Shown piece by piece: positions 2,292-25,673 of a stretch of DNA of 64,000 nucleotides (position 1 is its first letter; the number at the start of each line of letters is the position of its first letter). Under the pieces are notes generated by a model. It saw only the letters and a list, made by a program, of their open reading frames with translations. It was not told the origin of the DNA and made no database searches. The stretch comes from Polaromonas sp. JS666 (GTDB lineage: Bacteria > Pseudomonadota > Gammaproteobacteria > Burkholderiales > Burkholderiaceae_C). Location: NCBI RefSeq assembly GCF_000013865.1, contig NC_007948.1:2604001-2668000 (forward strand), given 5' to 3'. The position numbers and the translations under genes were made by a program.

Positions 2292-2357
2292 TCAAACGCG
2301 CAGCTGGCCGTACTCCGGCAGCTCGATGGCGGCTTGCATGATCGGCCGTGCCCATTC
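2292..2357 (-). pseudogene. Stranded 3' end of the zeta-toxin gene (other part at 25066-25673)
   Basis: Read on the minus strand from the target-duplication copy, this encodes EW followed by 19 residues (ARPIMQAAIE then LPEYGQLRV) and a TGA stop at 2292-2294. Removing the transposon at 2358-25065 and one CATTC copy joins this in frame to the zeta-toxin frame ending LTPEW near 25066-25070. That would give a toxin of about 222 residues. This reconstruction is the strongest evidence that the 22.7-kb transposon inserted here. Confidence 0.85.
2353..2357. repeat. 5-bp target-site duplication CATTC, left copy
   Basis: CATTC directly abuts the left terminal repeat, and the same five bases abut the right terminal repeat at 25066-25070 in direct orientation. 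Five base pairs is the standard Tn3-family duplication length. Confidence 0.85.
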
Positions 2358-2390
2358 GAGGGTCGGCCGTGATTCCTGAAAATTTCGCAG
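2358..2390 (+). repeat. Left terminal inverted repeat of the 22.7-kb transposon
   Basis: A 33-bp sequence starting GAGGGTCGGCCGTGATTCC and ending TTTCGCAG. Its exact reverse complement is at 25033-25065. A TTAAG typical of the inner end of Tn3 repeats follows at 2399-2403 and overlaps the stop codon of the tnpT-like gene. Confidence 0.9.
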
Positions 2391-2398
2391 AAACGCAC

Positions 2399-3496
2399 TT
2401 AAGTCCTTGTCCCCGTTGGCTTTTTCGATTCCCTCTTCGCTGGTCGAACGGCCCCTTCAGCCGGGCTCACAACCACATCAGGCCCAGGCGCCGGCACACT
2501 GAAACGCTCCAGCATGCTGGCCACGACCTGCTCCTGAGCCGTGACGGATGACCTAGCCGTCGCCAGCGCCAGTTCCACCTGCTGCTTCGCGGTGAGCAGC
2601 TCGTCGACCTTGGCTTGCAACTGCTCGTTCGAGGTGCTGAGCTGCTGGACGGCACTGTCCTGCTCGACCAGGCGCCGGCCCAGCTCCTCGGTGCGCCGTT
2701 GCGCAAACCCCAGCTCCTCCTTGAGCGGCCGCAGGCCCCGCACCTCTTCCTGGGCCTGGTGCAGATCGCCCTGGGCGCGCGACAAATCGCCCAGCAAACG
2801 CGCGTTGTCCTGAAGGGTGTGGACCGCTTCCTGCTGCTTGGTGGCCAAGGTCTCGTTCACGGTGCGCAATTCGGCCTGCAGGTACTGCACCTGCTGCTCG
2901 TGCTTGCGCTGGTCCTGCTCGCGCTGCTCCTTGCTGGATTGCCGGAAATGCTCCAGCGCCTGGCGCGCATGCTGGTGCTTTTCTTCCAGGGATTGGCGAT
3001 GGCGTTCTTCGGCCGCGATGCGCTCCTGCAGGTCGGCCACCTGCTGGGCGAGCTGCGTGCATTCAAGGGTCTTGCCGTTCAGCGCTTCGCTGGTTTTGCC
3101 GTGAGCGGTCTTTTCCTCGGCCAAGATCCGCTGGGTTTGCTCCAGCTGCTGGCGCGTGGACTGGGCCTCGGTTTTCAGGGCCGCAGCGGCTTGCTGGTGC
3201 TGGGTCAGCTGCTCGACGTGCCTGGCCTGCGCCGTGGTGACCCGCTCCTCCGCTTCCTCGTTGACCCGGGCCGCCAGGCGGCCCACCAGATCCTGGATCG
3301 CCTCGCTGACGGCCACCCGGCTGCCGGTGGCCGGCCCTTCCTCTTCCTCGATCTCCTTCAGGTAGCGATGGATCGTGGTTTTGGAGCCGCTGCCCAGCTC
3401 TTCGCGCACGGCGTCGATGGACGGATTGCGCCCCGTGGCCAGCAATTTATCGCGGGCGCGCAGCACTTCAGACTTGTAAATCCCGGCTCTGGCCAT
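2399..3496 (-). CDS. tnpT: TnpT-like cointegrate resolution protein (KfrA-type N-terminus, long coiled coil)
   Basis: A 365-residue protein. Residues 1-110 resemble the KfrA N-terminal DNA-binding domain (GSGSKTTIHRYLKEIE region). Residues 110-330 are rich in Q, E, A and L with heptad character, a long coiled coil. This layout fits TnpT of Tn4651-type transposons, which binds beside the recombination core and helps the tyrosine recombinase TnpS resolve cointegrates. The start is supported by AGAGGTGG upstream of the ATG. The stop codon lies in the inner part of the left terminal repeat, and the palindromic recombination site lies just upstream. A plasmid-type KfrA regulator is the alternative, but the position favours TnpT. 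Confidence 0.75.
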   Translation of the reverse strand: MARAGIYKSEVLRARDKLLATGRNPSIDAVREELGSGSKTTIHRYLKEIEEEEGPATGSRVAVSEAIQDLVGRLAARVNEEAEERVTTAQARHVEQLTQHQQAAAALKTEAQSTRQQLEQTQRILAEEKTAHGKTSEALNGKTLECTQLAQQVADLQERIAAEERHRQSLEEKHQHARQALEHFRQSSKEQREQDQRKHEQQVQYLQAELRTVNETLATKQQEAVHTLQDNARLLGDLSRAQGDLHQAQEEVRGLRPLKEELGFAQRRTEELGRRLVEQDSAVQQLSTSNEQLQAKVDELLTAKQQVELALATARSSVTAQEQVVASMLERFSVPAPGPDVVVSPAEGAVRPAKRESKKPTGTRT

Positions 3497-3731: not shown

Positions 3732-4982
3732 TCAGCCGGTTTTGGCTGGATGCTCTGCGCCGGGAAGCTCCTCGGGCGGTTGCACACGGCTGAACATGGT
3801 CAGCAGCAGGATGTCGTAGACGATCTTCAGGGCTCCACCCACGATCAGCGGCCATCCGAATGCAGACATGCCCAGGAGATAGCCTGCCAACGCGGGACTG
3901 GCGGCAGCAGCCAGGCTGCGCGGCACGGATGTCACGCTGGCTGCCGCGGCGCGCTCCTGCGGTGTCACGATGGCCATGACATAAGAGCTTCGCGTAGGCA
4001 CGTCCATCTGTGACAGCGCGCTCCTGACCAGCAGCAGAATGACCGCGTAAGTCAGGTCGGCACAAAACGGAATCGCGATCAGGCACAGGCTGGACGGCAG
4101 ATGGGTATAGACCATGGTCTTCACCAAACCAATGCGGCTCGCGATATGAGCCGCCGCCAAGTAGGAAAACGCGGTCAGCAGGCCGGCCCAGAAAAAGATC
4201 GAGCCGGCCACTTCGATCGAGAGGCCAAAGCGCTGGTACAGCCACAGGGCCACCAGCGACTGAACCACAAATCCCCCGCCGAAAGCGTCCAGGCTGAACA
4301 GCGTCGCCAGCAGGTAGACCCGCTTTTTGGAAGGACCCAGCGCCGAAACCGGTTCGGCGGCTTGCTCGGCAGGCCGTGACGGCAAACCGCGATACAGTCC
4401 GGCCATCACCAGAGCCAGCAAGGCATACAGGATGAACATCCCCTGGATGGCGGTCTGCGTCGTAATGCCCGCCACCGGAGCCGCCAATGCGGGCAAGGCC
4501 GCGGCCAGGGACCCAAAGGCCGCAAACAGGGTTCCCGTCAGGCTGTAGCGCGCAAAGACAGCCGTGCGGCTCGGGCCTTGGGCATGGCCGGCCAGCATCG
4601 CATGCTCCACCGGCATAAAAATGCTCACATCGCCGCCCGATGGATTCAGCGTGCCCACCAGCGCCACCAGCATCAGCGGCCAAAAGCTGTCCAGCGACGC
4701 GAAGCCCAGGCCCGTGAGCGCCATCAATGCCGAGGCCGCCAGCAGCAAGGGCCGGTGGTCGAAGCGCGACGCATGGAGGCCAATGAGGAGCGTCAGCACG
4801 CCGGACCCCAGCAAGGTCGTGGTCGCGATGAGGCCGACCTGAAAGGCCGACAGCCCAAGATTGAGCAGGTAGACCGGCAGCAGCAGGCTGACAAAGCCGT
4901 CGCCAAACCCCCTCATCGCCTTGGCGACCATCAGCCGGTTGAGAGGGGTGAGCCGAAAAACAGGCACGGCCGTTGAGTTCAA
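3732..4982 (-). CDS. Major facilitator superfamily transporter
   Basis: A 416-residue integral membrane protein with about 12 hydrophobic segments in two halves, joined by a polar loop near residues 200-225 (PSRPAEQAAEPVSALGPSKK). The cytoplasmic 2-3 loop LHASRFDHRP is MFS-like. It would move a small solute or metal complex across the inner membrane by proton coupling; the substrate cannot be told from sequence. The ATG overlaps the stop of the upstream lipoprotein gene, so the two form an operon. Its place at the left edge of a metal-resistance cargo suggests export, but no metal-binding tail is present. Confidence 0.85.
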   Translation of the reverse strand: MNSTAVPVFRLTPLNRLMVAKAMRGFGDGFVSLLLPVYLLNLGLSAFQVGLIATTTLLGSGVLTLLIGLHASRFDHRPLLLAASALMALTGLGFASLDSFWPLMLVALVGTLNPSGGDVSIFMPVEHAMLAGHAQGPSRTAVFARYSLTGTLFAAFGSLAAALPALAAPVAGITTQTAIQGMFILYALLALVMAGLYRGLPSRPAEQAAEPVSALGPSKKRVYLLATLFSLDAFGGGFVVQSLVALWLYQRFGLSIEVAGSIFFWAGLLTAFSYLAAAHIASRIGLVKTMVYTHLPSSLCLIAIPFCADLTYAVILLLVRSALSQMDVPTRSSYVMAIVTPQERAAAASVTSVPRSLAAAASPALAGYLLGMSAFGWPLIVGGALKIVYDILLLTMFSRVQPPEELPGAEHPAKTG

Positions 4983-5687: not shown

Positions 5688-5966
5688 CTACAAATACTTC
5701 GTGATGTCCTTGAACTCGGCAATCGAAGAGCGCACGCTGGCCGGCCCAGCGCTCACCACATCCTCCAGACAGTGATCCAGGTGATCATGGATCACCAGCT
5801 TCTTGGCGGCGCTGATGGCTTTTTCCACCGCGTGGAGCTGCTGGGCAATGTCCACGCAGGGACGTTGGTCCTCAATCATGGCAATCACGTTTTGCAGGTG
5901 GCCACTGGCGCGCTTCAGGCGCTTGACGACGTCGGGATGGGCGGTGTGCAGGTGAGTTTCGGGCAT
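5688..5966 (-). CDS. nreA: CsoR/RcnR-family metal-sensing repressor (NreA-like)
   Basis: A 92-residue all-helical DUF156 repressor of the kind that binds operators as a tetramer and releases on metal binding. Visible candidate ligands are C37, H62 and C66, the C-H-C pattern of CsoR and of the nickel sensor InrS, not the C-H-H pattern of E. coli RcnR. H5, H7 and H10 near the N-terminus could add ligands, as in nickel sensors. It is divergent from the NreB-like exporter, and the shared 95-bp gap holds a C-tract palindrome. Nickel (or cobalt) as the inducer is inferred from neighbours; copper is the alternative. Confidence 0.85.
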   Translation of the reverse strand: MPETHLHTAHPDVVKRLKRASGHLQNVIAMIEDQRPCVDIAQQLHAVEKAISAAKKLVIHDHLDHCLEDVVSAGPASVRSSIAEFKDITKYL

Positions 5967-6060: not shown

Positions 6061-7377
6061 ATGCTCGAAGTCCTCGCCAACCGCACCTATCGGCACCTGT
6101 TTCTGGCGCAGGTGATTGCCCTCCTGGGAACCGGGCTGGCCACCGTCGCGCTGAGCCTGCTGGCCTTTGACCTGGCCGGCGCCAATGCCGGCGCCGTCCT
6201 GGGCACGGCGCTGGCCATCAAAATGCTGGCCTACATTGGCGTCGCGCCGGTGGCCTCGGCCCTGGCCGAACGCCTGCCGCGGCGCGCCGTGCTGGTCGCG
6301 CTGGACCTGGTCCGCGCCGGCGTTGCGCTGCTTTTGCCGTTCGTGACGCAGATCTGGCATGTCTATGTGCTGATTTTTGTGCTGCAGTCGGCGTCCGCGG
6401 CCTTCACGCCGACCTTTCAGGCGACCATTCCCGATGTGTTGCCGCAGGAAGAGGCCTATACCAAGGCTCTGTCCCTGTCGCGGCTGGCCTATGACCTGGA
6501 AAGCCTGGTCAGCCCGATGCTGGCGGCGCTCCTCCTGACCGTGGTGAGCTACCACAGCCTGTTCGGCGGCACCGTGGTCGGGTTTCTGGCATCGGCGGCG
6601 CTCGTGGTCTCGGCCATCCTGCCGCGCGCCAAGATGCCGCCCAAGCGCAGCATTTACGAGCGCACCACACGCGGACTGCGGATCTACCTGGCCACACCTC
6701 GCCTGCGCGGCCTGCTGGCGCTCAACCTGGCGATCGCTTCAGGCAGCGCCATGGTCATCGTCAACACCGTGGTGCTGGTGCAGTCCGGCTTTGGCATGAC
6801 GCAGACCGCCACCGCCATCGCGCTGGCCTGTTTCGGTGCCGGCTCCATGCTGGTGGCGCTGGCCTTGCCCAAATTGCTCGACCGGGTGCCGGAACGCCGC
6901 GCGATGCTGGCCGGGGCCGGCTTGATCGCGCTGGGCCTTCTGGCCGGCTGGGGTCTGGCTGTTCACTACGCCGTCCTGTTGCCGCTGTGGTTTGTGCTGG
7001 GCCTGGGTTACTCCCTGGCGCAAACCCCCTCCGGGCGCCTGCTGCGCCGGTCGTCCGGCGACGCCGACAGGCCGGCGCTTTTTGCGGCGCAATTTGCCCT
7101 GTCCCACGCCTGCTGGCTCATCACTTACCCCCTGGCCGGCTGGCTGGGCGCCAAGTTCGGCCTGGCCGCCAGCTTTGCCACCCTGGGCTTGGTGGCCAGC
7201 GCCGCCGTGCTGCTCTCGGCCCGTCTGTGGCCTGCCGAAGACCCCATCGAACTCTTGCACCGACATGATGATTTGGCGCAGGACCACCCCCACCTGGTGC
7301 AGGACGATGCGGCCGCGTCAACCCGGCATTCGCATGCCTTTGTCATTGACGACGAGCACCAGCGCTGGCCGACCTGA
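6061..7377 (+). CDS. nreB: NreB-like nickel resistance exporter (MFS)
   Basis: A 438-residue MFS permease with about 12 membrane helices. The motif-A loop between helices 2 and 3 is AERLPRRAV. The C-terminal tail after about residue 395 is hydrophilic and His-rich (LLHRHDD, QDHPHL, TRHSHAF, DEHQRW), the hallmark of NreB, which exports Ni2+ and binds it with this tail. It is divergent from the CsoR/RcnR-type repressor and has GGAG just upstream of the ATG. The family assignment is clear; the nickel specificity comes from the tail and the neighbours. Confidence 0.85.
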   Translation: MLEVLANRTYRHLFLAQVIALLGTGLATVALSLLAFDLAGANAGAVLGTALAIKMLAYIGVAPVASALAERLPRRAVLVALDLVRAGVALLLPFVTQIWHVYVLIFVLQSASAAFTPTFQATIPDVLPQEEAYTKALSLSRLAYDLESLVSPMLAALLLTVVSYHSLFGGTVVGFLASAALVVSAILPRAKMPPKRSIYERTTRGLRIYLATPRLRGLLALNLAIASGSAMVIVNTVVLVQSGFGMTQTATAIALACFGAGSMLVALALPKLLDRVPERRAMLAGAGLIALGLLAGWGLAVHYAVLLPLWFVLGLGYSLAQTPSGRLLRRSSGDADRPALFAAQFALSHACWLITYPLAGWLGAKFGLAASFATLGLVASAAVLLSARLWPAEDPIELLHRHDDLAQDHPHLVQDDAAASTRHSHAFVIDDEHQRWPT

Positions 7378-7536: not shown

Positions 7537-8658
7537 ATGACCGATTTCTCGACCCTGATCCAGCAAGGAAGTGCCAGCGCCTGGCTGTTCATCCCCAGCG
7601 CCATCCTGCTAGGAGCCCTGCACGGGCTGGAGCCCGGCCACTCCAAGACCATGATGGCGGCCTTTATCGTAGCCATCCGCGGCACGGTCGGCCAGGCCGT
7701 CCTGCTGGGCCTGTCGGCCACGATTTCGCACACGGCGGTCGTCTGGGTGGTGGCCATGCTGGGCCTGTACTTTGGCCAGAAGTGGAGCGCCGAGGCCACC
7801 GAGCCTTATTTGCAGCTGGCGTCGGCCGTGCTGATCATCGGCGTGGCCCTCTGGATGATGGGGCGCACGTGGCGGGAAGAACGCCAGCGCCGCCAGGAGC
7901 ATCAGCACCCCCATGGCCACCATGACGAAGTCCGGCACATCGACACCGGCCACGGCGTCGTCCGGCTGGAGATTTTTGAAGAAGGCGTTCCGCCGCGGTT
8001 CCGGCTTCGTGCCGGCGCCGCAGGCAGCCACCGCTGGGCGGCATCGCAGGTCAAGGTGCAGACCAAACGTCAGGACGGCAAGGTGCAGGTTTTCAGCTTC
8101 ACCGACAAAGTTGGCTTCCTGGAGTCACGGCAGGAGATACCAGAGCCACACGAGTTTGCTGCCCAGCTTCAGCTGGGCCACGGCGATCACACGCACAACT
8201 ATGACGTCCAGTACACGGAAGCGGACCACGGCCACAAGCACGAAGGCGTTGGCCTGGACGTCGCCTCCCCGGGCTTTCAGGACGCCCACGAGCGCGCCCA
8301 TGCAGACCAGATCAGGAGCCGCTTCGCCAGCCAGCAGGTCACAACCGGGCAGATCATCGTGTTCGGGCTGACCGGAGGCCTGATTCCGTGCCCGGCGGCA
8401 ATTACCGTGCTGTTGTTGTGCCTGCAGCTCAAGGAGGTCACCCTGGGTGCAGCCCTGGTTCTGTGCTTCAGCATCGGCCTGGCCCTGACGCTGGTGCTTT
8501 CCGGCGCGGTTGCAGCCATCGGCGCGCGGCATGCCGCGAAGAAATGGAGCGGTTTTGGCGAGATCGCGCGCCGCGCGCCCTATGTTTCCGGCGGGCTCAT
8601 CCTGCTGGTCGGCCTGTATGTCGGATACCACGGCTACATCGGCCTGGCCGGAGGCTAA
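7537..8658 (+). CDS. NicO-family nickel/cobalt efflux protein with large His-rich insert
   Basis: A 373-residue inner-membrane transporter. The N-terminal half has the NicO signature HGLEPGHSK (residues 29-37) and three membrane helices. The C-terminal half has the second signature GLTGGLIPCPAAI and three more. Between them, about residues 115-265 form a soluble region with many histidines (HQHPHGHHDE, HGDHTHN, ADHGHKHEG) and a predicted beta-rich core. E. coli RcnA is only about 274 residues, so this insert is unusually long. The preceding operator-like palindrome and the ZIP gene 3 bp downstream indicate a metal-induced operon. Confidence 0.88.
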   Translation: MTDFSTLIQQGSASAWLFIPSAILLGALHGLEPGHSKTMMAAFIVAIRGTVGQAVLLGLSATISHTAVVWVVAMLGLYFGQKWSAEATEPYLQLASAVLIIGVALWMMGRTWREERQRRQEHQHPHGHHDEVRHIDTGHGVVRLEIFEEGVPPRFRLRAGAAGSHRWAASQVKVQTKRQDGKVQVFSFTDKVGFLESRQEIPEPHEFAAQLQLGHGDHTHNYDVQYTEADHGHKHEGVGLDVASPGFQDAHERAHADQIRSRFASQQVTTGQIIVFGLTGGLIPCPAAITVLLLCLQLKEVTLGAALVLCFSIGLALTLVLSGAVAAIGARHAAKKWSGFGEIARRAPYVSGGLILLVGLYVGYHGYIGLAGG

Positions 8659-8661
8659 GCC

Positions 8662-9453
8662 ATGCTGCTCGCTTCCATCGTAATGGCCTGCTTGCTGGGC
8701 GGCGTCCTGAGTGTGGTCGTTGCAGGTTTCCTGCTGAAGGGTTTGCCGCAGCACTGGCTGCCGCGCATGGTCGGCTTCTCGGCGGGCTTGCTGCTGGGCG
8801 CCGCAATGCTCTCGGTCCTGCCCGAGGCCTTTGAATCGGGGGCCGATGCCCATACGCTGTTTGTCGTGCTGCTGGCAGGGTTCGTCGGCTTTTATGCGCT
8901 GCAGCGCACGGCGCTCTGGCGCCATAGCCACAGCACGCCGGATGAGGCCGGCCAATCGACCCAGACGCACACCCATCACACGCACGCCCACGCCCCTGGC
9001 CTGGGGCGGGAAACCGTGCTGACCGTGTTGATCGGCGACGGTTTTCATAATTTTGTCGACGGCGTCCTGATTGCGGCCGCTTTTCTGACGGACCCTGCGC
9101 TCGGCTGGGCGACCGCGATCGCCGTCATCGCCCATGAGATCCCGCAGGAGGCCGGGGATTTTGTGCTGCTGCTGGCCTCTGGCTTGGGCTTTCGCCGGGC
9201 GCTGGCGCTCAATGCGCTGTCCGGACTGGCGTCGGTGCTGGGTGGCCTGGTCGGGTATTGGGGCCTTTCGCATGCGCAGGCTTTTTTGCCTTATGCGCTG
9301 GTGTTGGCGGCCGCCAGCTTTATCTACATCGCCATTGCGGATTTGCTGCCGTACCTGCGCCGCGAGCCTGCTGGCGCGCAGATCGCCTGGCAGACCGTGG
9401 CGCTGACGGCCGGTCTGGTGGCTGCTGCGTGGCTATCTGCGTCTCACGGATGA
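8662..9453 (+). CDS. ZIP-family metal transporter
   Basis: A 263-residue polytopic protein with the two ZIP metal-site helices: GDGFHNFVDG (H129, N130, D133) and HEIPQEAGDF (H158, E159, E163). A cytoplasmic His-rich loop (THTHHTHAHA) precedes them at about residues 102-111. ZIP proteins usually bring divalent metals into the cytoplasm, though some bacterial members work in both directions. It starts 3 bp after the NicO stop, so the two are cotranscribed. Pairing an importer family with an exporter suggests balancing essential zinc or iron under nickel stress, or export by this member. Confidence 0.88.
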   Translation: MLLASIVMACLLGGVLSVVVAGFLLKGLPQHWLPRMVGFSAGLLLGAAMLSVLPEAFESGADAHTLFVVLLAGFVGFYALQRTALWRHSHSTPDEAGQSTQTHTHHTHAHAPGLGRETVLTVLIGDGFHNFVDGVLIAAAFLTDPALGWATAIAVIAHEIPQEAGDFVLLLASGLGFRRALALNALSGLASVLGGLVGYWGLSHAQAFLPYALVLAAASFIYIAIADLLPYLRREPAGAQIAWQTVALTAGLVAAAWLSASHG

Positions 9454-9513: not shown

Positions 9514-10029
9514 ATGAACATTCAACCAGCGCGGACCACTTGCATGCAAATGACCGTGTTCCTGTTGGCGCTGGCGACATCGCAGGCATTCGCCCAGCAA
9601 GCCATCTACCCATCCCCGTCACTGACACCGGACGCCGCCCTGAAGGCAGCGCGGGCAGCACTGGAGGCCTGCCGCAAGAATGGCCACCAGGCGGCCGTCT
9701 CAGTCAATGACCGCGCCGGCAACGCCCTGGTGATGCTGCGCGACCGGTTTGCCGGCCCACACACCGTCGACACGGCCATCAACAAGGCCTATACCGCCGT
9801 CACCTTCAAGCTCGACACCACGAGCTTTGCGCGTTCGACCCAGGCCGGCGAAGCGGCGTCGGGCGTGCGACACCTTCCCCGCATCGTGGCCATAGGGGGC
9901 GGCATCCCCATCGAATCGGCCGGTTCCATCGTGGGCGCTATCGGGGTTTCGGGCGCGCCAGGCGGCGATGCCGACGAGGTCTGCGCCAAAGCCGGTGTTG
10001 CCGCAATCCGAGACGAACTCGACTTCTGA
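9514..10029 (+). CDS. Secreted GlcG/HbpS-family protein
   Basis: A 171-residue protein with a cleavable signal peptide (hydrophobic stretch ending SQAFAQQ) followed by a GlcG/HbpS fold. This is shown by the block HQAAVSVNDRAGNALVMLRD and the glycine-rich GGGIPIESAGSIVGAIGVSG. Family members bind haem, cobalamin or small organic ligands. A strong AAGGAG precedes the ATG, so it is well translated even if separate from the ZIP gene. Export to the periplasm and location in a metal island suggest metal or haem scavenging, but the ligand is unknown. Confidence 0.82.
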   Translation: MNIQPARTTCMQMTVFLLALATSQAFAQQAIYPSPSLTPDAALKAARAALEACRKNGHQAAVSVNDRAGNALVMLRDRFAGPHTVDTAINKAYTAVTFKLDTTSFARSTQAGEAASGVRHLPRIVAIGGGIPIESAGSIVGAIGVSGAPGGDADEVCAKAGVAAIRDELDF

Positions 10030-10058: not shown

Positions 10059-10406
10059 TCATCGCGCGAACATCGCGATCAGCGCGTCAATATCGTCCGC
10101 TGCGGCGGCACGTGACCGGCTCTCAATGGAACGGTAACGTTTGATGATTTCCTGTCCTACCGGCGTCAAGGCTGCGCCGCCGCCGCGCGCCCCGCCCGCC
10201 GTCGTGTTGACCGCAGGCAAGCTGAGCGCCCGATTCACCTCATCGATCAGCAACCAGGCGCGGCGGTAGGACATGCCGAGTTGCCTGGCCGCCGCGGAAA
10301 TCGAGCCGGCCTCGGCAACGGCTTCAAGCAGCGCGACCTTGCCCGGGCCGATGGCGATGCTGTCGTCCCGGTAGATGCGCAGGCGGAACTGCACGCTGTA
10401 TTTCAT
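10059..10406 (-). CDS. Short ModE-like molybdate-responsive regulator (DNA-binding domain only)
   Basis: A 115-residue protein matching the winged-helix N-terminus of ModE: SISAAARQLGMSYRRAWLLI is the helix-turn-helix and RGGGAALTPVGQEII the wing. The C-terminal molybdate-binding Mop domains of full ModE (about 260 residues) are absent, so ligand sensing may need a partner or be lost. It is divergent from the ABC transporter genes, and a ModE-like palindrome lies in the shared gap at 10484-10507. Confidence 0.85.
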   Translation of the reverse strand: MKYSVQFRLRIYRDDSIAIGPGKVALLEAVAEAGSISAAARQLGMSYRRAWLLIDEVNRALSLPAVNTTAGGARGGGAALTPVGQEIIKRYRSIESRSRAAAADDIDALIAMFAR

Positions 10407-10529: not shown

Positions 10530-11474
10530 ATGAACAACTCATCTTGCTGCCTTGCGCGCATTACAAAAGGGGTCGGCGTGATGCTGATCGGTGCCGCTGC
10601 TGTTGCGGCGCCGGCGGCACACGCTGCCGATGTCCTGCGTGTCGCCTATGCGGGTTCCATGGGGGTGGTGATGGACCGGTTTATCGGCCCGGCATTCGCC
10701 AAAGCCAATGGCGTGGAGTACCAAGGGGTCGGCCAAGGTTCTTTGGGCTTGGCCCGGCAGCTGGAGGGCCGGCTGATACAGGCGGATGTGTTCCTGCCCA
10801 TCACACCGGGACCCATCGACATTCTGAAGAAGGCCGGCATGATAGGCCCGGCTGTCCCGGTGGCGAGTACTCAGATGGTGATTGCTTACAGCCCGAAGAG
10901 CAAGTTTGCCCCCGACTTTGAAGCGGCGGCCCAAGGCAAAAAAACCTGGTACGAAGTCATGAAGATGCCCGGCCTGCGCTTTGGGCGGACCGATCCCGCC
11001 ACCGATCCACAGGGCCAGAACATCATTTTTACGATGCTGCTGGCGCAGAACTTTTACAAGCAACCCGGCCTGGCCGAGCGGATCCTGGGCGGCTACCAGA
11101 ACCCGCAACAGATTTTCACGGAAACCTCCATGCTGTCGCGCCTGGAAGGCGGACAGATCGACGCGTCTTCAGGCTATCTGAGTGCGGTGAGCTCGCACCA
11201 CCTGCCATTCGTCTACCTGCCGGACGAAATCAATCTGAGCAACCCCAATATGGATGCCAAGTGGTACAAAACCGTGCAATTCAGCATCACGCTGACCAGC
11301 GGCAAGGAAGCCACGCTGAACACCCAGCCGCTGGTGTTCTACGCCGCAGTGCTCAAAGACAGCAAACAGCCGGCGCTGGCTGAAAAGTTTGTGCAATTCC
11401 TGCAAAGCGCCGAAGGCCAGAAGTTATTCAAAGACAACGGCTACAGCCCACCCAAGGGCGGCCCGATTCAATAG
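10530..11474 (+). CDS. Molybdate/tungstate-type ABC transporter, periplasmic binding protein
   Basis: A 314-residue protein with a signal peptide ending AAHAADV. The mature part starts with LRVAYAGSMGVVMDRFIGPA and continues with GQGSLGLARQLEGRLIQADV, the pattern of ModA/WtpA oxyanion-binding proteins. It would capture molybdate or tungstate in the periplasm for the permease encoded next. The ModE-like box directly upstream supports Mo/W over sulphate. An alternative start at residue 18 (MLIGAA) would also leave a working leader. Confidence 0.85.
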   Translation: MNNSSCCLARITKGVGVMLIGAAAVAAPAAHAADVLRVAYAGSMGVVMDRFIGPAFAKANGVEYQGVGQGSLGLARQLEGRLIQADVFLPITPGPIDILKKAGMIGPAVPVASTQMVIAYSPKSKFAPDFEAAAQGKKTWYEVMKMPGLRFGRTDPATDPQGQNIIFTMLLAQNFYKQPGLAERILGGYQNPQQIFTETSMLSRLEGGQIDASSGYLSAVSSHHLPFVYLPDEINLSNPNMDAKWYKTVQFSITLTSGKEATLNTQPLVFYAAVLKDSKQPALAEKFVQFLQSAEGQKLFKDNGYSPPKGGPIQ

Positions 11475-16567: not shown

Positions 16568-16858
16568 GGCCGAGCCCTCCGTGGAGAGCGGGCGTGCGAG
16601 CCCGCAAGCGCAGAGATACGCTTGTGCGCCAGATGCGCTGTGCAAAAAAGAAGGAAAAAGCAAAAGACCAAGTGAGGCTCCTAATTGGGCGTGGTAACCC
16701 ATCATCAGGAGCAGTACTTGGGGCACCGGACGGCACCCTTGGCAGACGGGGAGACCGCTCAAGTCCCCGTTGGTTGATATCTTACGTCATTTCAGATTCA
16801 AAGGAAGCAGAAATTTCATCCCCAGAGCGCTAACCCCGCAGCGTGATGAGCCGTTGAG
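16568..16858. other. Non-coding stretch upstream of chrA
   Basis: About 290 bp without a convincing gene. It must hold the promoter of the chrA operon. No clear palindromic operator was found. AT content is higher than in the surrounding cargo. Confidence 0.4.
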
Positions 16859-17233
16859 CTAACGAGCTTGCGTCAGGTTTTTCATTTCAGGGAAAAGCGT
16901 GCCGTCCTGCTTGACCCAAAAATGGCAGTTGTAGGAAGCGCGGCAGTATTTGACCGACACCTCGTTTTGCACGATGTTCACCGAGAAGTTTTTGCCTGCC
17001 AGATAAATATGGGGATCGCGCGTGATAAAGGCATATTCCCAGCCTTCCGGGTTTGCAGCGAGCCAGCGCCTCACGGCCTGAACAGAGGGGGCGGTGTTTT
17101 CGAATTCCCGTTCTTGAATAGAGCGCTTTCCCTCGTAGACAGACAAGTGGACTTTTTCATTCACGGGTGGCGTGAAATCCAGGCGGCAGCCCGCAACAAG
17201 CACTGGCAAGAGAAGAATCAGAAAGCGGTTCAT
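16859..17233 (-). CDS. Small putative lipoprotein
   Basis: A 124-residue protein beginning MNRFLILLLPVLVAGC, a lipoprotein signal peptide with lipobox LVAGC. The mature part includes YCRASYNCHFWV with two cysteines. The ATG at 17233 is preferred over an open frame to 17320, because only it gives the leader. Not recognised as a known family. It may be a periplasmic sensor or binding protein linked to the adjacent metal genes. Confidence 0.65.
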   Translation of the reverse strand: MNRFLILLLPVLVAGCRLDFTPPVNEKVHLSVYEGKRSIQEREFENTAPSVQAVRRWLAANPEGWEYAFITRDPHIYLAGKNFSVNIVQNEVSVKYCRASYNCHFWVKQDGTLFPEMKNLTQAR

Positions 17234-17426
17234 ATGCTCGGCATTCAATCCACGTCTCCTGCAAAAATAAAGCCGACGTATCTTGCGATGTCGGCCTGTA
17301 ACTGTCCTGAGACAGCCCACTGAGGGAGGGAAAAAAGTGGGAAGACCTTGCGGCCGTGGCGGAGTTTACTGCTGAATATGCTTTACGTCCAAAAAAACTA
17401 AAGCGCAATGCCACTAGAATTGCGCG

Positions 17427-17777
17427 ATGGCCCGCAAGGTGTTGTCTTTCCTGCTAATTCTGTCGCTGTTCTGGCAGTCGGCCGCTATCGCCGGCGTCTA
17501 CGCACTGACGGAGATCGAGGAAACAGGCCATGTGGTCTTGCATTGGCAGGACTCGGAGCACCATCACCATGATGACGGCGCTCTGCATGCCGACGACTCG
17601 GGCGGCACCGTCCAGCACATGCATGCGGACAGCGCGAGCAACTCCCCGGGCTTGCTGACCGCGGGCTGGGACACGCTGCCGGCGCTGCATTCCGGTAGAC
17701 CGGCCATCCTGGCCGAACCACCATTTCCCTCTGCGTTCCCGCAGGGCCTTTTGCGGCCCCCGAGAACGCCCATCTGA
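17427..17777 (+). CDS. Small His-rich secreted protein (CzcI-like)
   Basis: A 116-residue protein with a signal peptide (MARKVLSFLLILSLFWQSAAI). A histidine cluster (DSEHHHHDDGALHAD) and a further VQHMHAD follow. The proline-rich tail (FPQGLLRPPR) resembles the ends of CzcI-type periplasmic proteins found with cobalt-zinc-cadmium and nickel efflux genes. Likely a periplasmic metal-binding or sensing protein; the family assignment is by pattern only. Confidence 0.65.
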   Translation: MARKVLSFLLILSLFWQSAAIAGVYALTEIEETGHVVLHWQDSEHHHHDDGALHADDSGGTVQHMHADSASNSPGLLTAGWDTLPALHSGRPAILAEPPFPSAFPQGLLRPPRTPI

Positions 17778-18001: not shown

Positions 18002-18793
18002 ATGCAAATAATAAAAACCCATGTCCTGCGCGTATTGATGGCGCTGGCGCTCTGCGCGCCACTGCTGGCGGCCGCTCACGGCATTTCCCTGGCCGACCAG
18101 GAGCGCATGCTCAGCGGCGGCTACGGGCTGTATGTCGTGCTCGGCGCCACCCATATGCTCACGGGTTATGACCACCTGCTGTTTCTCTTCGGCGTGGTGT
18201 TCTTCCTCACGGGCTTTCGGGATATCGCCAAGTTTGTGACCGCATTCACGCTCGGTCACTGCATCACCTTGATCGTCGCCACCTACCTCAAGATCACCTG
18301 GAATTTCTACCTGGTGGACGCGATCATCGCGCTCAGCGTGATCTACAAGGGCTTCGACAACAACGGCGGCTTCCAGAAGCATTTCGGCATGAAATCGCCC
18401 AATCTGCTGGCTGCGGTTTTCGCCTTCGGCTTGCTGCACGGCTTCGGGCTGTCCACCCGCCTGCAGCAGCTGCCGCTGGGTGACGACAAACTGGCCATGC
18501 TGGGCCGCATCCTGAGCTTCAACGTCGGCGTCGAGGCCGGACAGATCCTGGCGCTCTGCGCCATGGTCGGGCTGTTGGCGCTATGGCGCCGGCGGCAGTC
18601 CTTCCAGCGTTTCGCGTTCGCGGCCAATGCCGGCTTGATCTATGCCGGTGGCCTGCTGCTGCTCATGCAGCTGCATGGCTACCTGCACGACTCGGACCCG
18701 AACAGCTTCAGGTTCCCGGCGGACGAGCACCGCCATATTCACCAGGACCTGGATATCGAGAAAAGCGCGGACCCCAGCCGCGACGACCTCTAA
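18002..18793 (+). CDS. HupE/UreJ-like membrane protein
   Basis: A 263-residue protein with a signal-like first helix ending LLAAAHG. About six membrane segments follow, with conserved THMLTGYDHLLFLFGVVFFL, FTLGHCITLIVA and FGLLHGFGLSTRL. These His/Asp-containing helices are the mark of the second HupE/UreJ family, linked to nickel or cobalt permeation in hydrogenase and urease loci. The C-terminus is again histidine-containing (DEHRHIHQD). A metal channel or transporter role fits the surrounding nickel genes, but direction is not known. Confidence 0.82.
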   Translation: MQIIKTHVLRVLMALALCAPLLAAAHGISLADQERMLSGGYGLYVVLGATHMLTGYDHLLFLFGVVFFLTGFRDIAKFVTAFTLGHCITLIVATYLKITWNFYLVDAIIALSVIYKGFDNNGGFQKHFGMKSPNLLAAVFAFGLLHGFGLSTRLQQLPLGDDKLAMLGRILSFNVGVEAGQILALCAMVGLLALWRRRQSFQRFAFAANAGLIYAGGLLLLMQLHGYLHDSDPNSFRFPADEHRHIHQDLDIEKSADPSRDDL

Positions 18794-18830: not shown

Positions 18831-19181
18831 ATGAAAAACCTCCTCATCGCTCTCGCATCCGTCGCCGCTGTTGGCCTGTCAACTCCGGTACTGGCCTCCG
18901 AAGGCGGCGGCTGCCACTTCCACGGCAACACCCCGGCCAAAGAGGCCACCGTGGTGGGCTGCGCGGTGCAGCGCAAGGACACGCTGGCGACCAGCGGCAA
19001 AATCGATCCTTCATGGAAAGCCCTGAAGCATGACAAGGTCGAGCAGGTCGACGGCAAAAAGGGCAAGGAGTGGAAAGTGACCTTCAAGGACCCGGCAGTC
19101 AAGGACAAAGCCAAGGAGACCCTGTACGTGTTTTTCACCTTGCCGGGTAACTTCATTGCGGCTAATTTCACCGGTCAGTAA
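18831..19181 (+). CDS. Small secreted protein following the HupE/UreJ-like gene (DUF6488-like)
   Basis: A 116-residue protein with a signal peptide (MKNLLIALASVAAVGLS, cleavage near VLASEG) and AAGGAAA before the ATG. The mature part is Lys-rich with two cysteines (GGGCHFHG, VVGCAVQRKD) and a short His pair near its N-terminus. It is 37 bp downstream of the HupE/UreJ-like gene and probably cotranscribed. I associate it tentatively with DUF6488. A periplasmic metal-binding partner of the membrane protein is plausible. Confidence 0.72.
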   Translation: MKNLLIALASVAAVGLSTPVLASEGGGCHFHGNTPAKEATVVGCAVQRKDTLATSGKIDPSWKALKHDKVEQVDGKKGKEWKVTFKDPAVKDKAKETLYVFFTLPGNFIAANFTGQ

Positions 19182-19637: not shown

Positions 19638-19769
19638 GGCCGCCGCTCTGGCTTCCAGTCGCAAGGGGCCTTCACGCGCATGCCGGCGCGTCCCCGCAGA
19701 AAATCCGCCGTCGCCATTTGGCCTTCAGAGAATTGACGGCGATATGTCTAAACGGGCATAATTGAGGTG

Positions 19770-20153
19770 ATGTTGAAGCAAGCGCGCAAACCCATCAAAT
19801 GGGTCGGTTCCACCAAGCGCGATCTGGATGCGATGCCGGAGGATGTCAAAGATGTCTTCGGTCATGCCATCGACCTGGCACAAGCCGGCGGCAAGCACCA
19901 GGATGCCAAGGTGATGACCGGCTTCGGCTCGGCCGGCGTGCTGGAGGTGGTCGAGGATCATCAGGGTGACACTTTTCGGGCCGTTTACACCGTCAAGTTC
20001 GCCGGGTGGGTTTATGTCCTGCACTGCTTCCAGAAGAAGTCCAAAAGCGGCATCGCCACGCCGAAGCCGGACATGGACGTGATCAATATCCGCCTGAAAG
20101 CCGCGAAGCAGGATTTCGAAGCATGGCAGGCACAGCAAGGAGCACGCAAATGA
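19770..20153 (+). CDS. Gp49/HigB-family toxin of a type II toxin-antitoxin pair
   Basis: A 127-residue protein of the phage-derived Gp49-like (RelE/HigB) family, shown by FRAVYTVKFAGWVYVLHCFQ and KKSKSGIATPKPDMDVI. These toxins cleave mRNA at the ribosome. The start is uncertain: GTG 19767, ATG 19770 or TTG 19773 follow a GAGG. The antitoxin ATG overlaps the stop codon. Gp49-HTH pairs are known to sit inside the transposition modules of Tn3-family elements, as here, where they can select against loss of the element. Confidence 0.85.
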   Translation: MLKQARKPIKWVGSTKRDLDAMPEDVKDVFGHAIDLAQAGGKHQDAKVMTGFGSAGVLEVVEDHQGDTFRAVYTVKFAGWVYVLHCFQKKSKSGIATPKPDMDVINIRLKAAKQDFEAWQAQQGARK

Positions 20154-20479
20154 ATGGGCACAACGAAATCACGATCGAAGAAGGCGGCGCCAATGTCTAT
20201 GCCGACCTGGGTTATACCGACGCTGCGGAAATGCAGCGAAAATCCCAGCTCGCCGGCGAGATCGCCCGCGCGATCAAGGCGCGTCGCCTGACGCAAGAAG
20301 ATGCGGCGACGCTGCTGGGCATTGATCAATCCAAGGTCTCGCGCATCACGCGCGGCCAATTCCGCGGCGTCAGCGAAGCCAAGCTACTGGAGCTGGTGGC
20401 CAGGCTGGGGCACGATGTAAAGATCGTGGTCGGCCCGGTGCGGCGGCGCGCCGGCAAGATCGAGCTGCAGTTTGCCTGA
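20150..20479 (+). CDS. XRE/HTH_37-family antitoxin
   Basis: A 109-residue helix-turn-helix protein. The HTH is RRLTQEDAATLLGIDQSKVS followed by RITRGQFRGVSEAKLLELV. It is the partner of the Gp49-like toxin encoded just upstream (4-bp overlap) and should neutralise it and repress the operon. Toxin-first order is usual for HigBA-type pairs. Confidence 0.87.
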   Translation: MNGHNEITIEEGGANVYADLGYTDAAEMQRKSQLAGEIARAIKARRLTQEDAATLLGIDQSKVSRITRGQFRGVSEAKLLELVARLGHDVKIVVGPVRRRAGKIELQFA

Positions 20480-20545: not shown

Positions 20546-21892
20546 ATGGACCAGCGGGCGCCTGACGACAGTGACATGACGCGTCTTGCCCAATACATCG
20601 AGGCCTCCGAGCGCGACAACACGCGTCGGAGCTACGCTTCTGCCATACGCCATTTTGAAATAGAGTGGAAAGGCCTGCTGCCTTCTACCGCCGATGCCAT
20701 CGCCCGCTACCTGGCCGACCACGCGCCCACCTTGGCCATCAACACACTGCGCCAGCGCCTGGCGGCGCTGTCCCGCTGGCATAGCGACCAAGGTTTTCCT
20801 GATCCCACCAAGTCACCCCTGGTGCGCCAGGTCCTCAAAGGCATTCGCTCGATTCACGCTGTGCCAGAAAAGCGCGCACGCCCCCTGGAACTGGCGGTAC
20901 TCCAGCAGATCGATCAGTGGCTCGATGCCGCCATTAGCAACGCTCAGCGGATCGGCGACCGGCCGGCTTTGCTGCGCCACACGCGCGACCGCAGCCTGAT
21001 GCTGCTGGGATTTTGGCGCGGCTTTCGCTCCGACGAACTGGTCAACCTGCACGTTGAAAACACCGAAGTCACCCCCGGCCAGGGCATGGCCTGCTACCTG
21101 GGCCGCAGCAAAGGCGACAGGCAGCTGCAGGGCCGAACCTTCCAATGCCCGGCTTTGTCCCGCCTGTGCGCTGTGGACGCCTTTAGTGCCTGGGTCAGCC
21201 TGGCCGGTTTGACCGAGGGTCCGGTGTTCCGCAAGATCGACCGCTGGGGGAATGTGGCCGACGAAAGTCTGCATGCCAACAGCCTGATCCCCTTGCTGCG
21301 CAGCCTGTTCGCCGAGGCCGGCGTCGAGGCACCCGAGGAATACAGCAGCCATTCCATGCGCCGCGGCTTTGCCGGCTGGGCCCGCGCCAGCGGCTGGGAT
21401 ATCAAGGAGCTGATGGAATACGTCGGCTGGAAGGACGTCAAATCGGCCATGCGCTACCTGGATGCGTCGGATTCCAGTCTGCAAGCCCGCTTCGAGCAGG
21501 GATTGCCTGCTCTGGCGCCGGCAGTTCCGCAGCCACCACCACCTTTGCTGTTGCTGACCGAACAGGCCGAAGTTCCCCGCCCGCTGGCCGAGGGAGCGAC
21601 GCCCGTGGCGGTCCTGCGCGTCACGATGGTGCTGGCCCGCTTCAGCAAGCAGTCACGCGGCCTGGCCCGCGGCCACCGGCTGATCGAGCAGACCTGCTTC
21701 GAGCGTTTTGCCATGCAACGCCTGAACACCGAGGGCACGCTCTACGAGCTGGCGATTCCCTACCTGTCCCGCGACTTGCTGGACGAGGTGATCGCCACGC
21801 TGCTGGATGACATGTACCGCATCGCCGAGGACAACCAGTGCCTGCTGGAAACCTCGTTTCACGAGCCCGCCACTGATTCACACTGGGATTGA
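20546..21892 (+). CDS. tnpS: Tyrosine recombinase of the transposon (TnpS-like)
   Basis: A 448-residue integrase-family recombinase. The N-terminal SAM-like core-binding domain spans about residues 10-110. Catalytic residues are R in FWRGFRSDEL (about 159), K in GRSKGDRQ, HSMRR (about 269-272), W in VGWKD and Y in MRYLDA (about 303). A further 140-residue tail is longer than in most relatives. It lies 66 bp after the antitoxin and 146 bp before tnpA, same strand, so it most likely resolves cointegrates. Known TnpS genes sit divergently next to tnpT; here tnpT and the candidate core site are at the other end. Confidence 0.85.
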   Translation: MDQRAPDDSDMTRLAQYIEASERDNTRRSYASAIRHFEIEWKGLLPSTADAIARYLADHAPTLAINTLRQRLAALSRWHSDQGFPDPTKSPLVRQVLKGIRSIHAVPEKRARPLELAVLQQIDQWLDAAISNAQRIGDRPALLRHTRDRSLMLLGFWRGFRSDELVNLHVENTEVTPGQGMACYLGRSKGDRQLQGRTFQCPALSRLCAVDAFSAWVSLAGLTEGPVFRKIDRWGNVADESLHANSLIPLLRSLFAEAGVEAPEEYSSHSMRRGFAGWARASGWDIKELMEYVGWKDVKSAMRYLDASDSSLQARFEQGLPALAPAVPQPPPPLLLLTEQAEVPRPLAEGATPVAVLRVTMVLARFSKQSRGLARGHRLIEQTCFERFAMQRLNTEGTLYELAIPYLSRDLLDEVIATLLDDMYRIAEDNQCLLETSFHEPATDSHWD

Positions 21893-25008: not shown

Positions 25009-25032
25009 AATATCAATGAGTTAGCTTAGATC

Positions 25033-25065
25033 CTGCGAAATTTTCAGGAATCACGGCCGACCCTC
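25033..25065 (-). repeat. Right terminal inverted repeat of the 22.7-kb transposon
   Basis: Exact reverse complement of 2358-2390 over 33 bp, ending ...CGGCCGACCCTC at the outer boundary. It lies 24 bp after the tnpA stop. Its outer end also supplies the last codons and stop of the truncated zeta toxin. Confidence 0.9.
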
Positions 25066-25673
25066 CATTCGGGTGTCAGGTTCAAGGCCGCGGCATCCTC
25101 CCGCTCGGGAAATACCATTTGGCCGACTATTACCTCCAGCACCAGTATCGGGTCAGGAATGTCCTGCCCTGGTGTCGCTTCAGCGCTGTTGTCGAACACC
25201 TGCAAGCGGGCCAGCAGCGGTAACAGCTTGATCAGGTTCGCGCGTGACGCGACCCAGCGCTCGCGAATCTTGTTTTCCGGGATGTCGTGACCGCCTTGAA
25301 CGACGCGAAATCGCACCCGCCCGATATGTTGCTCTGGCGACAAGAGACCACAAAAAAGCATCACGACGTCATGGCTGCGGCTTGCCTTGGCCAGCAACTC
25401 AGGGATGGTCCTGGCACCCAAGGTGGTCTCGAAGGCGTAATTCGTCCCGTCTGCAATGGCGGCCTCGAGTCGGGAACGGCCATGCTCCCACGCGAGACCA
25501 TTCGCCTGGCCTTGTTCCAGGCCCAGTTGGGACATCAACTCACGCGCATAAGTATCCGGATTGAACCAAGTCAGGCCGTGTTCGGTCAGCATGGCGCCCC
25601 CCACCGAGCTTTTGCCGGCGCCGTTGACGCCGGCCAGCACAAAAATAAAAGGGCGCGCGGCCGCTTCGGGCAT
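25044..25673 (-). pseudogene. Zeta-toxin family kinase, 3' end replaced by the transposon
   Basis: A 209-residue protein with the zeta-toxin P-loop GVNGAGKSS near residues 14-22, NPDTYARE, and FETTLGARTIPELL. It would phosphorylate UDP-N-acetylglucosamine or a similar substrate. The Tn3 insertion removed the last 19 natural residues, now stranded at 2292-2357, and added RVGRDS from the terminal repeat before a stop. The core kinase is intact, so the chimera may still be active. The antitoxin stop overlaps its ATG by one base (TGATG). Confidence 0.85.
25066..25070. repeat. 5-bp target-site duplication CATTC, right copy
   Basis: Direct repeat of 2353-2357, immediately outside the right terminal repeat. 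Confidence 0.85.

What the first reader, a model, noticed from the sequence alone, without database searches (positions are those of the whole stretch)
2353..25070. Complete 22.7-kb Tn3-family metal/oxyanion transposon inside a zeta-toxin gene
Both ends, a CATTC target duplication and the restored reading frame across the junction can be read directly. The element carries nickel/cobalt, chromate and Mo/W genes as one mobile unit. A combination of NreA/NreB, NicO, ZIP, ModE-ModABC-like and ChrA with an SOD-rhodanese fusion in one Tn3 unit is not one I know from the described transposons.
Basis: partly seen in the sequence, partly recalled or inferred. Interest (0 to 1): 0.9.

Follow-up and report, generated by a model that had tools for sequence, protein, structure and literature searches.

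The report
Metal transposon carrying molybdate uptake genes
A complete 22.7-kb jumping gene of a known family sits in a toxin-like gene of a soil bacterium and carries nickel/cobalt and chromate efflux genes together with a molybdate/tungstate importer; its jumping machinery was already on a published list, and what looks new is its full extent, its split resolution machinery and the molybdenum cargo.

Summary
Window 2358-25065 (22,708 bp) has perfect 33-bp inverted repeats and a CATTC duplication, and interrupts a zeta-like kinase gene 21 codons before its end: an uninterrupted homologue matches both parts (194/201 and 21/21 residues). Replicon sizes fit Polaromonas sp. JS666, where the transposition module (Gp49 toxin, HTH_37 antitoxin, recombinase, tnpA) is already catalogued as TnPosp1, marked partial (Lima-Mendez 2020). 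In what I read I saw no account of its ends, target, tnpT, rst site or cargo.

Resolution is TnpS/TnpT-type but split: rst and tnpT lie at the left end, toxin-antitoxin-tnpS-tnpA at the right, 16 kb of cargo between. Two other elements are split too; 16 of 55 scanned loci have an adjacent pair.

Ni/Co genes are traditional cargo of this branch, chromate genes occur on a related element, and SOD-rhodanese fusions are common. Less ordinary is a ModE-WtpABC molybdate/tungstate importer. Molybdate importers also ride a Curvibacter sibling and a clostridial Tn3 element, and WtpABC sits beside chromate genes on a Cupriavidus plasmid. A joint role where chromate is high and Mo scarce is my inference.

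The parts
2353..2357 (.). left copy of target duplication CATTC
2358..2390 (+). left 33-bp terminal inverted repeat
2399..3496 (-). tnpT: KfrA_N-type helper, 44-47% to the pWW0 (Tn4651) TnpT over about 240-256 aa
3520..3614 (.). probable rst resolution site: palindromes ATAGTATGTA-9-TACATACTAT (3520-3548) and ACATTGGGTAAT-5-ATTATCCAATGT (3586-3614); the first shares its 9-bp arms with a palindrome between tnpT and tnpS on pWW0
   Evidence: both kinds also in RA8, Curvibacter C42, L043, L051 with changed but still paired arms in the last three; the second kind was not returned for pWW0
3732..4982 (-). MFS transporter gene (TTG start as listed)
   Evidence: PF07690, 91.4 bits
4979..5620 (-). ORF with lipoprotein-like signal by eye, no family; start uncertain
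5688..5966 (-). RcnR/CsoR-type metal sensor, 60% to MreA of pWW0
6061..7377 (+). NreB-like MFS exporter (name recalled; TIGR00900 287.5 bits, cut-off 319.6)
7537..8658 (+). NicO-family Ni/Co efflux protein, 64% to MrdH of pWW0
8662..9453 (+). ZIP-family metal transporter
9514..10029 (+). HbpS-like protein, 83% to one in the RA8 element
10059..10406 (-). ModE-like DNA-binding protein (only the HTH domain was found)
10530..11474 (+). WtpA-type tungstate/molybdate binding protein
11537..12328 (+). WtpB-type permease
12294..13367 (+). WtpC-type ATPase with TOBE domain
13411..13821 (-). small protein, secreted by eye; homologue in the Cupriavidus chr cluster
13831..14445 (-). LamG/DUF1080-like protein; homologue in the Cupriavidus chr cluster
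14442..15359 (-). Fe/Mn-SOD fused to rhodanese (separate SOD and ChrE genes in Cupriavidus)
15368..16762 (-). ChrA chromate efflux transporter
16859..17320 (-). ORF, no family
17427..17777 (+). His-rich small protein, no family
18002..18793 (+). HupE/UreJ-type permease
18831..19181 (+). DUF6488 protein (start taken at the domain)
19767..20153 (+). Gp49 (RelE/HigB-type) toxin of the transposon TA pair; the only match in the genome at E<=1e-10
20150..20479 (+). HTH_37 (HigA-type) antitoxin (start by analogy with the annotated RA8 gene)
20546..21892 (+). tnpS: tyrosine recombinase, 56% to the pWW0 (Tn4651) TnpS over 300 aa
22039..25008 (+). tnpA: Tn3-family transposase, complete DDE domain
25033..25065 (-). 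right 33-bp terminal inverted repeat
25066..25070 (.). right copy of target duplication CATTC
25071..25673 (-). target: first 201 codons of the zeta-like AAA_33 kinase gene (its last codons lie in the left flank, up to 2357)

Best explanation
It is a complete Tn3-family, Tn4651-related transposon whose transposition module was catalogued as TnPosp1. TnpA acts on the 33-bp ends and inserts replicatively with a 5-bp duplication (ends, duplication and target shown; chemistry inferred from the family). TnpS with helper TnpT resolves cointegrates at the rst site beside tnpT, although tnpS lies 17 kb away (genes and probable site shown; activity inferred). The Gp49/HTH_37 pair probably stabilises the element (inferred). 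The cargo lies between rst and the TA-tnpS-tnpA block and arms the host in metal-contaminated sites: Ni/Co sensing and export (RcnR-like, NreB-like, NicO), chromate export and oxidative-stress help (ChrA, SOD-rhodanese), and ModE-controlled WtpABC import of molybdate/tungstate, which likely offsets Mo scarcity or chromate competition for oxyanion uptake (inferred).
For: Perfect ends and duplication; contiguous target gene in a homologue; open tnpA, tnpS, tnpT and TA; tnpT and tnpS homologous to those on pWW0, with the same rst arm sequence. Of 300 mononucleotide shuffles, 1 reached the best and 0 the second-best palindrome score. Single Gp49 toxin match in the genome, with replicon sizes 5,200,264/360,405/338,007 fitting JS666 (PMC6015842 passages). 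A sister element with another cargo and a 5-bp duplication in G149 (AGCTC, 25,792 bp). WtpABC followed by chrB-chrA-SOD-chrE and homologues of the LamG-like and small proteins in Cupriavidus Ni-2. WtpA aligns with archaeal Mo/W-binding proteins of solved structure; residues D159 and E198 align with what I recall as the two carboxylate ligands of the A. fulgidus protein.
Against: Only sequence evidence: no transposition or resolution was observed, and the element occurs once in this genome. TnpA is only 35% identical to the pWW0 Tn4651 TnpA. The second (core-like) palindrome was not returned for pWW0, and TnHdN1, L027 and L039 gave neither palindrome in this form. The G+C content of the element does not stand out from its flanks. 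No molybdoenzyme family was found among the element's ORFs scanned. The RCH2 study explains Cr sensitivity of molybdate-transport mutants by loss of nitrate reductase, not by oxyanion competition (PMC5554334). No ChrB was found in the chr block. The Mo-chromate link is seen in few contexts.
Confidence: 0.85

Rival explanations
1. The 22.7 kb is not one transposing unit but a stack of separate insertions that happen to lie between two related ends.
For: The cargo is modular, with alternating strands and different best relatives for different blocks; Curvibacter C42 shows a hybrid with two different ends.
Against: Both ends are identical over 33 bp, the duplication is exact, only these two copies exist in the genome, Pfam found no second transposase among the cargo ORFs scanned, and no internal copy of the ends with up to 9 mismatches was found.
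Confidence: 0.05
2. The molybdate/tungstate genes are chance passengers without a link to chromate or nickel; transposons capture any metal-related gene.
For: Tn3 elements carry varied cargo. Of 8 other plasmid contexts with Mo/W importer genes that I opened (two near-identical ones counted once), only 2 had chromate-annotated genes in the stretch. L079, L082, L083 and L084 have close WtpABC relatives but no ChrA or SOD match in the stretch held.
Against: The WtpABC-chr neighbourhood recurs in Cupriavidus with shared accessory genes although the block is inverted; ModABC-TauE lies near ChrB in Cereibacter; related Tn3 elements took up ModABC separately.
Confidence: 0.45
3. The element is immobile: with tnpS separated from rst/tnpT, resolution fails and the unit is fixed.
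For: 16 of 55 loci have tnpT and tnpS adjacent and divergent; only three elements are split. A single copy in this genome.
Against: All mobility genes are open and TnpA is 96-97% identical in Curvibacter elements. Recombinase and helper are diffusible (general knowledge) and the probable site is present.
Confidence: 0.1

Closest known systems
TnPosp1 / TnPosp1_p (CP000316.1, Polaromonas sp. JS666; Lima-Mendez et al. 2020, PMC7157771)
   Same: Almost certainly the same element: same accession by genome identity, Gp49 toxin plus HTH_37 antitoxin in the order T>A>resolvase>tnpA, Tn4651 subgroup; the genome has one such toxin match.
   Different: Called TnPosp1_p in places and given resolvase type R in Table 1 (S+T in the text); in the abstract, passages and one section I read, no ends, tnpT, rst, cargo or target are described. 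I could not consult TnCentral or the supplement.
Tn4651/Tn4652 (pWW0; P. putida KT2440)
   Same: TnpS 56%, TnpT 44-47%, one rst palindrome with identical arms; an RcnR-like/NicO pair (mreA/mrdH, 60-64% identical) lies between tnpT/tnpS and tnpC-tnpA. PMC3056050 passages: mrdH is involved in Ni, Cd and Zn resistance and Tn4652 and IS1246 flank mrdH/mreA in KT2440. That the pWW0 genes are Tn4651 is recalled; the record does not name it, and I did not locate its ends.
   Different: TnpA 35% identical; tnpT and tnpS adjacent and divergent (181 bp); no Mo/W or chromate gene annotated in the pWW0 stretches opened (1-98,000).
TnHdN1 (FP929140.1)
   Same: TnpA 45%, TnpS 58%, TnpT 44%; TA pair inside the transposition module.
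   Different: PIN_3/RHH_6 TA; tnpT-tnpS adjacent (183 bp apart).
Variovorax sp. RA8 plasmid element (L001)
   Same: tnpT 89%, tnpS 90%, antitoxin 83%, HbpS 83%; chromate cargo; split tnpT/tnpS.
   Different: Different ends and TnpA (51%); ChrA 30%; cargo between TA and tnpS; no matching 5-bp flanks; toxin gene matches in two pieces.
Curvibacter delicatus C42 element (L074/L075)
   Same: TnpA 97%, tnpS 91%, TA 90-93%; ModE plus molybdate importer cargo; split tnpT/tnpS.
   Different: ModABC rather than WtpABC; left end RA8-type, right end of the present type; no matching flanks.

Membership tests
Tn3 family | Tn3-type DDE transposase of about 1000 aa | tested here: met
   989 aa, PF01526 over the full profile 1-389/389, plus DUF4158
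Tn3 family | Terminal inverted repeats of about 30-50 bp (range recalled) | tested here: met
   33 bp perfect; 85% over 52 bp
Tn3 family | 5-bp target duplication | tested here: met
   CATTC on both sides; target gene contiguous in an uninterrupted homologue
Tn3 family | Replicative transposition through a cointegrate | not testable with these tools
   needs an experiment
Tn4651 subgroup | TnpA clusters with Tn4651 and not with Tn21/Tn3 types | tested here: met
   FastTree branch separating Tn1000, Tn4653 and four other transposases from the rest has support 1.000; identity 35% to Tn4651, 45% to TnHdN1, 25% to Tn4653. Labels Tn1000 (F) and Tn4651/Tn4653 (pWW0) are recalled. Tn163, IS1071, Tn4430 and IS3000 types were not included by name, so the subgroup is not fully tested.
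Tn4651 subgroup | TnpS + TnpT resolution proteins | tested here: met
Canonical TnpS/TnpT cassette | tnpS and tnpT divergent, with rst between them | tested here: not met
   probable rst lies beside tnpT, tnpS 17,050 bp away; hence filed as a variant
TnPosp1 | CP000316.1, Gp49/HTH_37, T>A>resolvase>tnpA | tested here: met
   order as stated; one Gp49 match in the genome; replicon sizes fit JS666
TnPosp1 | Resolvase type R as listed in Table 1 | tested here: not met
   the gene beside tnpA is a tyrosine recombinase (PF00589); the paper's text itself counts TnPosp1_p as tnpS+tnpT
WtpABC tungstate/molybdate importer | WtpA-type binding protein | tested here: inconclusive
   best NCBIfam hits are WtpA (125.5 and 110.8 bits) but below the curated cut-offs 355 and 242.75; best PDB relatives are archaeal Mo/W-binding proteins

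The most novel reading that the evidence does not exclude
Molybdate/tungstate import operons with their own regulator are a recurrent cargo of metal-resistance transposons: taken up separately by two members of this Tn3 branch (WtpABC here, ModABC in Curvibacter) and by a clostridial Tn3 element, and lying near chromate genes here, in Cupriavidus and in Cereibacter. They would be mobile oxyanion-homeostasis modules that keep molybdoenzymes supplied where chromate competes and Mo is scarce. In this branch, cargo enters close to the rst site, splitting the resolution genes.
Probability: 0.35. Interest if true: 0.6.

Novelty: new variant of a known kind. Interest (0 to 1): 0.4.

Why it matters
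It completes a catalogued but partial transposon and shows that the TnpS/TnpT resolution genes can sit at opposite ends with the site beside tnpT. That predicts resolution in trans over 17 kb and suggests the neighbourhood of rst as a cargo-entry point. If the molybdate cargo is selected together with chromate resistance, metal tolerance would travel as efflux plus rescue of a starved cofactor metal, which can be tested with deletions and growth assays.

Tried and rejected
The 488-aa ORF at 3604-5070 was first taken as a gene; it has no family, and the MFS frame at 3732-4982 does. A further case of Mo cargo in the Oxalobacteraceae MAG (L050) was dropped: its mod genes lie outside the end-like sequence at 3835. 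wtpC-only hits (L002, L017, L053, L067) were not counted: ABC ATPases without the other subunits. The Hydrogenophaga pair of ends (G114) was not counted as a complete element because its flanks CATAC/GCCAT differ. Presenting the SOD-rhodanese fusion as unusual was rejected. A cargo breakpoint exactly at the rst core was rejected: similarity continues about 40 bp beyond it (by eye). Inverted repeat I2 (2295-2328 against 25750-25783) was taken as chance.
Full report
Observation. The element proper is 2358-25065, 22,708 bp, with identical 33-bp repeats; the similarity of the two ends continues to 52 bp at 85%. In the 5.9-Mb genome the repeat occurs once in each orientation, at these ends only, at up to 3 mismatches. 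G+C content does not set the element apart from its flanks.

Target. The interrupted gene belongs to the AAA_33/zeta-like kinases (AAA_33 26.4 bits, just under the 27-bit cut-off; many listed homologues also carry PF06414, zeta toxin) and sits beside a Phd/YefM-like gene (26.9 bits against a 29.8 cut-off). Further right come an ankyrin-repeat gene, a TatD-type gene and a DNA polymerase III delta-type gene, so the locus looks chromosomal. The first 201 codons (right flank) and the 21-residue left-flank peptide were compared apart with 40 of the 120 listed homologues. P0132, 222 aa, matches 194/201 and 21/21; P0134 shares 11/21 of the tail, P0157 5/21, and the other 37 share 0-3/21, so the tail is variable in this family and the P0132 match is informative.

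Identity of the genome and prior record. The three contigs measure 5,200,264, 360,405 and 338,007 bp. A paper on Polaromonas plasmids gives 5.2 Mb, 360 kb and 338 kb for Polaromonas sp. JS666, GenBank CP000316-CP000318 (PMC6015842, passages). Lima-Mendez et al. 2020 (PMC7157771; abstract, passages and one section read) list TnPosp1 (CP000316.1): Gp49 toxin, HTH_37 antitoxin, order T>A>resolvase>tnpA, Tn4651 subgroup, called TnPosp1_p elsewhere in the paper; for TnHdN1.1 they explain that partial means ends not identified, and I take _p in that sense. The genome holds one Gp49 match at E<=1e-10, the one in this window. So the transposition module is already catalogued. Table 1 gives its resolvase as R whereas the text counts it with tnpS+tnpT; here it is a tyrosine recombinase. 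I saw no description of its ends, tnpT, rst or cargo in what I read; the supplement and TnCentral were not consulted. A search for TnPosp1 by name led to this paper only among the five listed (listing).

Mechanism of mobility. tnpA is open over 989 aa with the whole DDE domain. tnpS is 56% identical to the pWW0 TnpS over 300 aa and tnpT 44-47% to its TnpT; that these pWW0 genes are those of Tn4651 is recalled. Upstream of tnpT lie two palindromes at 3520-3548 and 3586-3614. Ten tnpT-upstream stretches were scanned. The window, RA8, Curvibacter C42, L043 and L051 give two palindromes of these kinds; in C42, L043 and L051 the arms differ yet remain self-complementary (one mismatch in some). pWW0 gives the first with the same 9-bp arms but not the second; L028 gives only a core-like second one; TnHdN1, L027 and L039 give neither in this form. 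Of 300 mononucleotide shuffles of the window stretch, 1 reached the best and none the second-best score. This is the rst site in all likelihood.

Split resolution genes. Scanned were 55 loci: the 51, RA8, a second stretch of the Curvibacter locus, pWW0 and the window; matches had to exceed 500 bp (tnpS) or 180 bp (tnpT). In 16, tnpT and tnpS are adjacent and divergent (in L045 the pair lies beyond the right end of the element that brought the locus in). In 4 loci, which are 3 elements (window 17,050 bp apart, RA8 7,824, Curvibacter 6,174; L019 and L075 are one locus), both are present but apart; 9 have tnpS only, 1 tnpT only, and 25 neither. In RA8 and Curvibacter the TA pair follows tnpT and the cargo lies between TA and tnpS; here the cargo lies between rst and TA. 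Cargo thus sits on either side of the TA pair, close to rst.

Mosaicism. RA8 shares tnpT (89%), antitoxin (83%) and tnpS (90%) with the window but has another TnpA (51%) and other ends. G149 shares TnpA (79-80%) and ends (3 mismatches of 33) but has other tnpT/tnpS-type genes, which the window's TnpS and TnpT did not match. Resolution and transposition modules therefore recombine, in line with the exchange near res proposed in PMC7157771. In the family, 5 of 299 genomes, own included, carry the end sequence at up to 3 mismatches.

Classification. On the TnpA tree the window groups with Curvibacter C41 and C42, Variovorax ISL-81 and G149, and the set including TnHdN1 and Tn4651 is split from Tn1000, Tn4653 and four other transposases with support 1.000. 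It is a Tn4651-related Tn3 element with a non-canonical arrangement of the resolution genes. Not every subgroup was represented.

Cargo. Ni/Co: RcnR/CsoR-type sensor, NreB-like exporter, NicO, HupE, His-rich protein; also ZIP and a second MFS protein. On pWW0, mreA/mrdH lie beside tnpC-tnpA and between them and tnpT/tnpS, 60% and 64% identical to the sensor and the NicO protein, so this part is traditional cargo. Chromate: ChrA and an SOD-rhodanese fusion. At least 110 of the 119 listed homologues other than the query carry both domains (8000 candidates scored, 120 listed), so the fusion is ordinary. Mo/W: ModE-like regulator and WtpABC. WtpA resembles archaeal Mo/W-binding proteins of solved structure, though its scores stay below the curated WtpA cut-offs.

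How unusual is the Mo/W cargo? WtpA relatives at E<=1e-30 occur in 7 of 399 genomes of the order (3 of them at 80% identity or more, own included) and at E<=1e-60 in 7 of 369 of the class, own included. Among the 51 loci of related tnpA genes, importer genes lie inside the element in Curvibacter (ModA and ModB above NCBIfam cut-offs, with ModE) and in two 11.08-kb copies in Pseudobacteroides cellulosolvens (regulator, ModA and ModB above cut-offs, ATPase, TauE, serine resolvase, tnpA). That is 3 of 51 loci and a lower bound, because flanks were at most 10 kb and the queries were the window's proteins. On a Cupriavidus metallidurans Ni-2 plasmid WtpABC is followed by chrB, chrA, SOD, chrE, a further chrB-domain gene, a LamG-like gene and a homologue of the small protein. 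The window has homologues of chrA, the SOD and rhodanese (fused), LamG and the small protein in the same neighbourhood, with the block inverted; I did not show that the Cupriavidus cluster lies inside a transposon. Of eight other plasmid contexts of Mo/W importers opened (two near-identical ones counted once), TauE/SafE is near the importer in five, a chromate-annotated gene is in the stretch in two, and a transposase gene is in the stretch in five (Tn3-type in two). These were chosen by eye, not sampled.

Interpretation. Published support for a Mo-chromate link: a molybdate ABC transporter mutant of P. stutzeri RCH2 loses further fitness under Cr(VI) (-1.2), which the authors explain by nitrate reductase loss (PMC5554334, passages and abstract). 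A Bacillus ModA binds chromate with KD 1.56 uM, and Mo is described as limiting nitrate reduction at the metal-contaminated Oak Ridge site (PMC7604516, passages). I infer that importing Mo/W while exporting chromate is useful in such sites; this is not shown for this element.

Print record. Paper searches for Tn3 family with molybdate, and for molybdate transporters with mobile elements, returned two papers each. Passages of one, PMC10488154, note one plasmid for 'Molybdate absorption' without naming a transposon; of the others, PMC3056050 was read only for mrdH and Tn4652 and the rest only seen in listings. Searches for nickel, chromate, tungstate or nreB, chrA with Tn3 gave 6 and 13 papers, seen as listings. 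The library holds open-licence papers only, so this does not show absence from print.

Verdict. The thing is a complete, catalogued-as-partial Tn4651-related transposon with a split resolution module and mostly traditional metal cargo plus a Mo/W importer. Moderate interest.

Noticed in passing
window 1-1762 and L085 2383-3999 (G000 C1 2602377-2605310): Immediately left of the element lies an open Tn4651-type tnpA (65% to the pWW0 Tn4651 TnpA in its C-terminal half, 45% in its N-terminal part) followed by a TnpC-like ORF (48% over 61 aa); the element may be nested in, or beside, another Tn4651-like transposon..
   Followed up: partly
L055 2000-13079 and L060 2000-13080 (Pseudobacteroides cellulosolvens): Two 99.97% identical copies of a molybdate-importer Tn3 element have exchanged flanking 5-mers (ATAAT/TATAA and TATAA/ATAAT), as expected if recombination between the copies rearranged the DNA between them..
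   Followed up: partly
L074/L075 (Curvibacter delicatus contig C42): Hybrid element: left end of the RA8 type, right end of the window type, no matching flanks..
   Followed up: partly
L001 9419-9788 (Variovorax RA8): The Gp49 toxin gene matches in two pieces and is not annotated, while the antitoxin is annotated; the toxin gene may be broken..
   Followed up: no
L068 1098-5716 / L003 11923-16541 (Hydrogenophaga PBL-H3): tnpA of a related element is interrupted by about 1.66 kb; its two parts are 70% and 89% identical to the window's TnpA..
   Followed up: no
L090 (Citrobacter sp. R56 plasmid pR56A): ModA-TauE-ModB-ModC with a LysR-type regulator gene directly follows tni genes and a recombinase next to a mer operon, suggesting a Mo importer in a Tn5053-like (label recalled) mercury transposon..
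   Followed up: no
L093 (Cereibacter azotoformans plasmid pORIO3): ModABC-TauE with a TOBE protein and a regulator lies near ChrB, fluoride exporters (CrcB) and a SulP transporter..
   Followed up: no
L088 (Hydrogenophaga BPS33 plasmid): A LysR-type regulator gene, ModAB, an ABC ATPase and TauE lie beside genes annotated as arsenate reductase (azurin), i.e. arsenite oxidase, a molybdoenzyme (recalled)..
   Followed up: no
L046, L047, L048, L059, L065, L066, L067 (marine-type gammaproteobacteria): Long TnpS directly upstream of tnpA with no tnpT match in the stretch held (some stretches are short); the split arrangement may be wider than the three elements counted..
   Followed up: no
window 7392-7423: Tandem 8-bp GCCGGGAT-type repeats between nreB and nicO..
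   Followed up: no
L070/L071 (G149) and L072/L073 (Curvibacter C41): Elements with the same type of ends and TnpA carry heavy-metal P-type ATPase, sensor-kinase and efflux (RND or HlyD) genes instead; the Curvibacter one also holds a second Tn3 transposase gene..
   Followed up: partly
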